64,000 bases of DNA from Pseudomonas fluorescens (lineage in GTDB: Bacteria > Pseudomonadota > Gammaproteobacteria > Pseudomonadales > Pseudomonadaceae), in the NCBI RefSeq assembly GCF_900215245.1, contig NZ_LT907842.1, forward strand, positions 4,836,001-4,900,000, in the 5' to 3' direction. The first letter of the stretch is position 1. Every line of letters starts with the position of its first letter. Shown here piece after piece: positions 50,601-53,600 of the stretch. The notes under the pieces are model-generated. The model was not told where the DNA came from, ran no database searches, and saw nothing but the letters and a program-made list of their open reading frames with translations. The position numbers and the translations under genes were made by a program.

Positions 50601-53600
50601 TTGATGCACACCAGCGTCTGGTGCCGGTGGGCGTGGCCGGTGAACTGTATGTGGGCGGCGGCGGCGTGGCGCGAGGCTATTTGCACCGCCCGGACTTGAG
50701 CGCCGAACGCTTCCTGCAAGACCCGTTCAACGAAGGGCGCATGTACCGCACCGGCGACCTGGTGCGCTGGTTGCCCGATGGCAATCTCGAGTACCTGGGC
50801 CGTAATGATGACCAGGTCAAAGTGCGCGGCGTGCGAGTCGAACTCGGCGAAATCGAAAGCCGCCTGGCGGCGCTGGACAGTATCGGCGAAGCCGTGGTGT
50901 TGGTGCGCGAGGGCCGTCTGATCGCCTGGTTCACCGAACACTACCCGCTGGAGATTGACACCCTGCGCGCACAACTGCGCGAGCAGCTCCCCGACGCGCT
51001 GGTGCCGGCCGCCTACGTCAAGCTCGACGCGCTGCCCCTGACTGCCAACGGCAAACTGGACCGCCAGGCGCTGCCGCAGCCCGATCAAGCGTCGTTGCTG
51101 AGCCGCGACTATGAGGCACCTCAAGGTGAGGTGGAAACCACCCTGGCGCGTATCTGGGCCGAGGTGTTGCAGGTCGAGCAAGTCGGCCGTCACGACCACT
51201 TCTTCGAACTGGGTGGCCACTCGCTGCTGGCCGTCAGCCTGATCGAACGCATGCGCCAGGTCGGCCTCAGCGCCGATGTGCGTGTGCTGTTCAGCCAGCC
51301 AACGCTCGCGGCCCTGGCCGCCGCCGTAGGCAGTGGTCGCGAAGTGCAGGTGCCGGCCAACCGCATCAGCGTTGATTGCCAGCGCATCACCCCGGACATG
51401 CTGACGCTGGTGACACTCGACCAATCGACGATTGATCAGGTGGTCGCCCGCGTCCCCGGCGGCGCCGCCAACGTACAAGACATTTACCCGTTGGCGCCAT
51501 TGCAGGAAGGCATTCTTTATCACTACATCACCGCCGAGCAGGGCGACCCGTACCTGCTGCAATCGCACCTGGCCTTCGACAGTGTGGAGCGCCTGCATGC
51601 CTTTGCCCAGGCGCTGCAACACGTCATCAACCGGCATGACATCCTGCGCACCGGTGTGGTGTGGGAGGGGTTGGTGCAACCGCTGCAAGTGGTGTGGCGC
51701 AAAGCCGAGCTGAGCATGCAGGCCGTGCACCTGCAAGGCGATGTACTGGCCGGTCTGCACGAGCGTTTCGATGCGCGGCGCTACCGCGTGGATATCAGCC
51801 AGGCGCCCCTGATCCGCCTGATTTACGCCAACGACCCGGCCAACGCGCGTGTCGTGGTGGTGCTGCTCTATCACCATATCGCCCTCGACCACACCGCCTT
51901 CGACGTGGTGCTGCGCGAAATGCAGGGCTATCTGCTCGGCCACCCGGCCCCCACGGCGGCGCCGATGCCGTACCGCAACTATGTGGCCCAGGCGCGTTTG
52001 GGCGTGAGCGAACAGGAACACGAACGCTTCTTTCGCGAAATGCTCGGTGATGTGGACGAACCGACCTTGCCGTTCGGCTTGCAGGATGTGCGCGGCGACG
52101 GCAGCGCCATCGAAGAACATTGCCTGCGCCTGGACAGCGCCCTCAACCGTCGCCTGCGCGCCCAGGCCCGGTTGCTCGGCGTGAGCACCGCGAGCCTGTT
52201 CCACCTGGCCTGGGGCCAAGTGCTGGCGGCGACGTCGGGGCGTCACAGCGTGGTGTTCGGCACGGTGCTGGTGGGCCGCATGCAAGGCGGCGAGGGCGCT
52301 GACCGGGCGCTGGGGGTATTTATCAATACCTTGCCGCTTCGCCTGGAAATCGACGCGCAAGGTGCACGCGCCGCGGTGCGTGCGACCCACGCCCGGCTCA
52401 CCGCGTTGCTGGGGCATGAGCACGCGTCGCTGGCGTTGGCTCAGCGCTGCAGCGGGGTGACGGCACCGGCGCCGCTGTTCAGCTCGATGCTCAACTATCG
52501 CCATCGCGGCGCCGCGACTCAATCGGCAGACGCGCAACAGGCCTGGGAAGGCATGCAAACCCTGGTCAACGACGGGCGCACCAACTACCCGCTGACGTTG
52601 AACGTGGATGACCTGGGCGATGGCTACGAGGTCACCGCCCTGGCGCAAATCGACGCGCAACGGGTGTGTGGCTATATGCAAACAGCCTTGGCCGGGCTGG
52701 TCGATGCCCTGGAGCACGCACCGCATCAGGCGCTCAATCGCTTGCCGATCCTAGGCCATGACGAGCGGCACACACTGCTGGTGGAGTTCAACTCAACGCA
52801 GGTGCACTACAACCTCGACCAGACCCTGCACGGCCTGTTCGAAGCCCAGGTCGAGCGCACGCCGGATGCCATCGCGGTCAAAGCCGGCGACCTGCAGCTG
52901 ACCTATCAGGCACTCAACGAACGCGCCAATCGCCTCGCCCATCACCTGCGTGAACGCGGCGTACAGCCGGATTCGCGTGTGGGTATCTGCGTCGAGCGTG
53001 GCCTGGACATGGTCATCGGCCTGTTGGCCATCCTCAAGGCCGGTGGCGGTTATGTACCCCTCGACCCGGCGTACCCACGCGAGCGTATTGCCTACATGCT
53101 GCAAGACAGCGCGCCCGTGGTGGTGCTGGCGCAGGGCGCCACCGTTGAGTTGCTCGGCGATGTGCCGGTGCTCGATCTGGACCACGACACCTGGCAACAC
53201 CAGCCTGCTGCCAACCCTCAAGTGCCGGGGCTCACCGCCCAGCATCAGGCCTACGTGATCTATACCTCCGGTTCCACCGGCCAGCCCAAGGGCGTGATCA
53301 ACGAGCACGCCGGCGTCGTCAACCGCCTGCTGTGGATGCAGGACGCGTACGGCCTCAAAGCCCATGACACGGTGCTGCAGAAAACCCCGTTCAGCTTTGA
53401 CGTGTCGGTGTGGGAGTTCTTCTGGCCGCTGTTGACTGGCGCACGCCTGGTGATGGCGCGCCCGGGCGGCCACAAGGAACCGGCGTACCTGTGCGAAGTG
53501 ATCGAAGCGGAGCACATCACCACGCTGCACTTTGTGCCATCGATGCTCGAGGTGTTCCTGGCCCACGGCGATGTCAGCCAGGCCGCCGGGCTGGTGCGCG

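What the first reader, a model, noticed from the sequence alone, without database searches (positions are those of the whole stretch)
51512..51550. Decayed epimerisation motif (HYI) in the fourth C domain, where viscosin carries L-Leu5
Dual condensation/epimerisation domains carry HH-I/L-xxxx-GD near their N-terminus. The C domain of the Ser6 module reads HYITAEQGD, with Tyr (TAC, 51524-51526) in place of the second His, one transition from CAC. The T domain before it still has the epimerisation-partner sequence (SLIERMRQVGLSADVRVLF). Loss of epimerisation here would leave Leu5 as L, as in viscosin, whereas WLIP has D-Leu5. This residue could be a simple genetic marker separating the two products.
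Basis: partly seen in the sequence, partly recalled or inferred. Interest (0 to 1): 0.7.

Follow-up and report, generated by a model that had tools for sequence, protein, structure and literature searches.

The report
Silent epimerase in a viscosin synthetase
One building-block joiner of this bacterium's viscosin-making enzyme has probably lost its side job of flipping leucine to its mirror form; the altered residue first noticed is a good but imperfect marker, and a lost glutamate further along the same domain looks like the better one.

Summary
Tyr as the lesion is only partly supported. (1) Tyr is not sufficient: the orfamide synthetase of Pseudomonas sp. PH1b has HY in C3, yet orfamide has D-Glu2. 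(2) Intact HH does not secure epimerisation: idle C2 domains keep HH. (3) Between HY-type and HH-type loci the rest of C6 (about 51690-52800) is a separate, deeply diverged allele between undifferentiated flanks, with 18 further fixed columns. (4) One of these, Gly at 52574-52576, replaces the Glu of a motif x-E-R-[S/T]-N-Y-P. Over 42 loci that Glu is kept at C3, C4, C7 (41/41 each) and C5 (41/42) and splits 16 Glu / 26 Gly only at C6. In 36 domains (only 6 L) of six producers or conspecifics, E-[R/H] separates D from L 36/36 (relaxed after the fact from 35/36), HH 30/36. Natural recombinants (HH+Gly, HY+Glu) decouple the two markers and make the question testable. Leu5 is very probably L here; the causal residue is unproven.

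The parts
41633..54544 (+). viscB, four-module NRPS (Thr3-Val4-Leu5-Ser6)
   Evidence: pocket residues
54541..64000 (+). viscC (GTG start, overlaps viscB stop by 4 nt), three modules and two TE regions; runs past the window end to genome position about 4901874
51458..52801 (+). C6: condensation domain of the Ser6 module, acts on Leu5; descends from dual C/E domains
51521..51547 (+). N-terminal motif HYITAEQGD; Tyr codon 51524-51526
51690..52800 (+). approximate block in which HY-type and HH-type loci carry two diverged alleles (L-type core here)
51872..51892 (+). intact primary motif HHIALDH
52568..52594 (+). NDGRTNYPL, where active dual domains read x-E-R-[S/T]-N-Y-P-L; Gly codon GGG at 52574-52576
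49397..49423 (+). GEERSNYPL in C5, the intact form for comparison

Best explanation
C6 is a former dual condensation/epimerisation domain that now only condenses, so Leu5 stays L and the strain makes a viscosin-type (L-Leu5) lipopeptide. The change is carried by a whole C6-core allele that has moved between strains by recombination inside the gene. The residue change most likely to stop epimerisation is Glu to Gly in the motif x-E-R-[S/T]-N-Y-P (Gly 3648 of ViscB, nt 52574-52576); Tyr 3298 is a linked, secondary change, perhaps drift after the loss or tuning of the donor site for an L-configured chain. Shown: the sequences, the two core alleles, the decoupled natural recombinants, the match of E-[R/H] with known D/L residues. 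Inferred: that the Glu takes part in epimerisation, that this strain's Leu5 is L, and the order of events.
For: Same core allele, Tyr and Gly as in P. costantinii and P. palleroniana, for which viscosinamide (L-Leu5) is reported. Glu kept at C3 41/41, C4 41/41, C5 41/42, C7 41/41 and variable only at C6, 16 Glu to 26 Gly, over 42 loci. E-[R/H] right in 36 of 36 domains of six producers or conspecifics, HH in 30 of 36; 46 of 46 against 38 of 46 with two bananamide strains at family level. HY with Glu in PH1b C3, which stands before D-Glu2. Gly with intact HH in bananamide C5 (idle C5 reported for P. azadiae SWRI103) and GG in PsoB C5 (an L residue in the body of the putisolvin helix, said to be leucine). 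Phi with the core allele: Glu/Gly 1.00, H/Y 0.75.
Against: The rule was found on part of the data it is scored on (the C6 domains) and relaxed once, from E[RH][ST]N (35 of 36) to E[RH]. Only 6 of the 36 domains are L, four of them C2, which are broken in several motifs at once; PH1b C2 keeps a Glu at the aligned column and lacks the Arg. Without C2 the scores are 31 of 31 against 29 of 31, so the contrast is small and orthologues are not independent. Several configurations rest on species, conspecific or group level, or on general knowledge of the viscosin family. Glu/Gly cannot be separated from the other fixed core differences by these data. No structure, no assay, no product analysis.
Confidence: 0.55

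Rival explanations
1. One reading: Tyr in place of the second His of the N-terminal motif removes epimerisation by itself, and H/Y is a simple marker of D/L-Leu5.
For: Agrees with the four viscosin-family cases at hand. H/Y is the upstream site most associated with the core allele, phi 0.75, next 0.57, of 141 polymorphic columns.
Against: HY in the C3 domain of orfamide producer PH1b and of a P. protegens protein, before D-Glu2. Idle C2 domains with HH. The idle bananamide C5 position has HH in the two strains read. Active C9 of P. palleroniana has QH, so the motif tolerates change.
Confidence: 0.13
2. C6 is idle because of several core residues together, or one other than the Glu, such as Tyr for Phe just before HHIALDH or a rewritten donor pocket; Glu to Gly is only a passenger of the L-type core.
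For: 18 fixed columns inside the block, among them Y/F at 51869, F/L at 51899, L/R at 51911, G/A at 51926; 46 columns separate the known L from the known D C6 domains.
Against: Of these, I saw the Glu-to-Gly change recur at idle or suspected idle positions in other families, with otherwise different domains. The other sites were not checked across families in the same way.
Confidence: 0.26
3. C6 still epimerises and the strain makes D-Leu5 (WLIP type).
For: No chemistry for this strain; HY alone is tolerated elsewhere.
Against: Tyr, Gly and the core allele are all those of P. costantinii and P. palleroniana.
Confidence: 0.06

Closest known systems
Epi-inactive module-6 E/C domain of viscosin, viscosinamide and massetolide synthetases
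   Same: Same place, same core allele, same Tyr and Gly as in P. costantinii and P. palleroniana; described as idle in PMC7409209 and PMC10531924
   Different: Nothing found; product not measured here
Epi-active module-6 E/C domain of WLIP and pseudodesmin synthetases
   Same: Same place and module; flanking A5, T5, A6, T6 undifferentiated in the HH-type loci
   Different: HH, Glu kept, other core alleles
C3 of the orfamide synthetase of Pseudomonas sp. PH1b
   Same: HY in the N-terminal motif
   Different: Glu kept; stands before D-Glu2
C5 of bananamide synthetases (BW11P2, B1M1-15)
   Same: Gly in place of the Glu, QDGRTNYPL, primary motif intact
   Different: HH intact; idle C5 is reported for P. 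azadiae SWRI103, not for these two strains

Membership tests
Dual condensation/epimerisation (E/C) domain | Condensation-domain fold family (PF00668) | tested here: met
   144.8 bits
Dual condensation/epimerisation (E/C) domain | Primary motif HHxxxDH | tested here: met
   HHIALDH
Dual condensation/epimerisation (E/C) domain | N-terminal motif HH[I/L]xxxxGD | tested here: not met
   HYITAEQGD; one residue off, and relatives with HY include an active one
Dual condensation/epimerisation (E/C) domain | Groups with dual-type domains in a tree | tested here: met
   FastTree; nested among HH domains, apart from the LCL domains that fell into the set
Dual condensation/epimerisation (E/C) domain | Epimerises the preceding residue | not testable with these tools
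   predicted absent
LCL condensation domain | Primary motif HHxxxDG and no N-terminal His motif, as in C8 | tested here: not met
   HHIALDH; C8 has WFLALM and HHIVSDG
Viscosin-family synthetase | Nine modules as 2+4+3, predicted Leu-Glx-Thr-Val-Leu-Ser-Leu-Ser-Ile | tested here: met
   pocket positions set by hand from recalled numbering
Viscosin-family synthetase | L configuration of Leu5 (viscosin rather than WLIP subgroup) | not testable with these tools
   predicted only

The most novel reading that the evidence does not exclude
A single Glu in x-E-[R/H]-[S/T]-N-Y-P is a general on/off switch for epimerisation in Pseudomonas dual C/E domains, lost to Gly independently in viscosin C6, bananamide C5, putisolvin C5 and some putida-type C6 domains, and viscosin strains trade L-making and D-making C6 cores as recombination cassettes inside one module.
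Probability: 0.42. Interest if true: 0.72.

Novelty: new member of a known kind. Interest (0 to 1): 0.5.

Why it matters
Papers on these lipopeptides say that idle C/E domains make D/L prediction from genomes unreliable and that no agreed sequence cause is known (PMC10531924 and PMC9431178, sections and passages). If the Glu is the switch, stereochemistry could be read from sequence, and the H/Y marker would be replaced by a better one. The natural recombinants named here test it without any engineering.

Tried and rejected
Tyr as sole cause: rejected as a general rule because of the HY orfamide C3 domain. T-domain difference: rejected, the same stretch precedes C5 and C6. P0032 (P. mosselii) as the xantholysin enzyme XtlB: taken so in a note, withdrawn because its A-domain order is Gln-Ser-Val-Leu-Leu-Gln; not used as evidence. 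HHxxxDH against HHxxxDA as the rule: fits the four C2 domains but misses both C6-L domains. Poaeamide configuration as arbiter: no Leu5 configuration found in the passages I could open or in the listings. P. yamanorum as arbiter: LMG 27247T makes WLIP, but proteins named P. yamanorum fall in both types (P0146 HH, P0151 HY) and I could not tell which is the type strain. Nepenthesin producer H1h (L160) has HY with Glu at C6; its Leu5 configuration was not in the text. Tolaasin: the C domain after Val9 in P. tolaasii protein P0168 reads HHLVNDA and SDSIVSYPL like idle C2, in P. salomonii protein P0193 HHLALDH and SEERTNYPV; tolaasins are said to differ at Val9, but which one is L I only recall, so it is not counted. 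Factin-type C2 and C3 lack E-R (DV, EK) and their configurations were not found. No structural model; of 29 chains matched by sequence none is named as a dual C/E domain, the best is McyB.

Papers: 15 opened, in passages unless said: PMC10531924 (abstract, sections 2.3 and 3, legends), PMC9948697 (also section 6 whole), PMC7409209, PMC9431178, PMC11546977, PMC1894796, PMC10212144, PMC9769872, PMC12430492, PMC12948218, PMC8719888, PMC12038845, PMC8401041, PMC6104475, PMC8949500. Figures and supplements were not seen. Balibar 2005 was not seen.

Full report
WHAT IS THERE. The window lies in a 6.51 Mb Pseudomonas genome. viscB (41633-54544) has four modules and viscC (from 54541, GTG start, 4-nt overlap) three; viscA, with two modules, lies elsewhere in the genome. 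A-domain pocket residues suggest Leu-Glx-Thr-Val-Leu-Ser-Leu-Ser-Ile (positions set by hand from recalled numbering). The six other dual-type domains, C2, C3, C4, C5, C7 and C9, have HH; C8 is LCL-type.

WHAT IS ALREADY KNOWN. C6 is described as E/C-type in viscosin-family synthetases, idle where Leu5 is L (viscosin, viscosinamide, massetolide) and active where it is D (WLIP, pseudodesmin) (PMC7409209 passages; PMC10531924 sections 2.3 and 3). The cause was called elusive, and 74 idle and 394 active domains showed no striking difference in the N-terminal motif. So an idle C6 is a known thing; its sequence cause is the open question.

HY is found in P. costantinii LMG 22119 (viscosinamide per PMC9948697) and P. 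palleroniana LMG 23076 (viscosinamide reported for the species); HH in the protein named pseudodesmin synthetase (P0152) and in P. wayambapalatensis RW3S1, conspecific with RW10S2 (PMC8401041 passages), a WLIP producer. That domain acts on Glu2, and the orfamides of PH1b matched reference orfamides whose Glu2 is D (PMC9431178 passages). So HY does not by itself stop epimerisation. Conversely, C2 of the viscosin-, orfamide- and WLIP-type enzymes read here keeps HH and stands before L-Leu1.

TWO ALLELES OF THE C6 CORE. A FastTree of 190 domains from the C6 position, motif masked, gives a clade of 85 rows (74 HY, 11 HH) with the window and both L-Leu5 species, and one of 25 rows (23 HH, 2 HY) with P. 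reactans and relatives; the label needs 10 changes. Sliding windows over 36 HY-type and 17 HH-type loci, with 7 decoupled loci set apart, show that only about 51690-52800 is differentiated: identity between the groups is mostly 0.65-0.75 there (0.81-0.82 in two windows) against 0.76-0.87 within groups; A5, T5, the linker, about the first 70 residues of C6, A6 and T6 are not differentiated. Nineteen columns differ in a fixed way (95 percent or more on each side): H/Y, alone upstream of the block, and 18 inside it, two of which are gaps in the HH type. In the decoupled loci, L060 and L059 have HY with the D-type core, and L050, L051, L046, L116 and L075 have HH with the L-type core. H/Y is still the upstream site most associated with the core (phi 0.75, next 0.57, of 141 polymorphic columns).

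A BETTER CANDIDATE. One fixed difference recurs in other families: the motif x-E-R-[S/T]-N-Y-P near the end of the domain. C3, C4, C5 and C7 of this synthetase read EERTNYPL or EERSNYPL and C9 EEHTNYAL; C6 reads NDGRTNYPL and C2 SEAILSYPL. Over 42 loci (window and L041-L081; C7 without the window) the Glu is kept in C3 41/41, C4 41/41, C5 41/42 (the exception, L081, has only two modules in its last enzyme) and C7 41/41, and split 16 Glu to 26 Gly at C6. The C6 cross-table is HY+Gly 22, HH+Glu 14, HH+Gly 4, HY+Glu 2; in the 72 proteins, partly the same strains, HY+Gly 45, HH+Gly 14, HH+Glu 13. Two putida-type loci, L180 and L093, have HH with Gly.

SCORING AGAINST KNOWN STEREOCHEMISTRY. For six producers or conspecifics (P. 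costantinii, PH1b, pseudodesmin synthetase, RW3S1, anikasin producer HKI0770, P. palleroniana) I scored 36 domains, 30 D and 6 L: HH against not-HH is right in 30, E[RH][ST]N in 35, and E[RH], relaxed after seeing the one miss, in 36. Without the C2 domains it is 29 against 31 of 31. Two bananamide strains taken at family level bring it to 46 domains: HH 38, E[RH] 46. The configurations come from passages for orfamide and for Leu5 and Leu1 of the viscosin family, and from the statement that Amphisin-group predictions match structures; the other D residues of viscosin-family peptides rest on general knowledge. The domains are not independent, and the two C6-L domains helped to form the rule; C2, bananamide and putisolvin were looked at afterwards. 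Idle C2 domains have also lost GD and carry HHLVNDA, and PH1b C2 keeps a Glu at the aligned column but not the Arg, so the Glu is not the whole story there.

MECHANISM, AS FAR AS IT GOES. Most likely the Glu helps the alpha-carbon proton exchange and Gly at 52574-52576 ends it, while the intact HHIALDH keeps condensation going. Against the GAG of C5, GGG is one transition, as TAC is from CAC. Tyr would be secondary. Whether the motif has been noted before I cannot say fully: of the 9 papers that hold one of four letter strings of it, none is about NRPS by its title, but Gotze et al. 2019 (PMC7472662) was not held.

VERDICT. The Glu/Gly site at 52574 is the marker I would use, and strains that decouple the two sites give a clean natural test.

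Noticed in passing
L180 (Pseudomonas sp. S30) and L093 (G149), last C domain of the B enzyme: Putida-type viscosin-family loci with intact HH but NEGRTNYPL or HEGRTNYPL at C6; the Glu reading predicts L-Leu5 there.
   Followed up: partly
L060 (G168) and L059 (G119), C6: HY motif joined to a D-type C6 core; L060 is 0.95-1.00 identical to HH-type L064 downstream, a sign of recombination close to the motif.
   Followed up: partly
P0168, P0030, P0031 against P0015, P0017, P0020, P0193 (tolaasin-type enzymes): The C domain of the Gln10 module exists in an idle-C2-like form (HHLVNDA, SDSIVSYPL) and an active-looking form (HHLALDH, SEERTNYP), at the place where tolaasins are said to differ.
   Followed up: partly
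C9 of many viscC, e.g. L129: The first His of the N-terminal motif is Gln in 13 of the 667 dual-type domains, all listed in the last C domain of viscC-type enzymes; Ser8 is D in this family by general knowledge.
   Followed up: no
L044 (G176), viscB: viscB open frame is about 210 residues shorter between C4 and C5 than in the other loci; may be an internal deletion.
   Followed up: no
window 36001-41425: Upstream of viscB lie a CobN-type chelatase, an AAA chelatase-like protein and a VWA protein, not lipopeptide genes.
   Followed up: no
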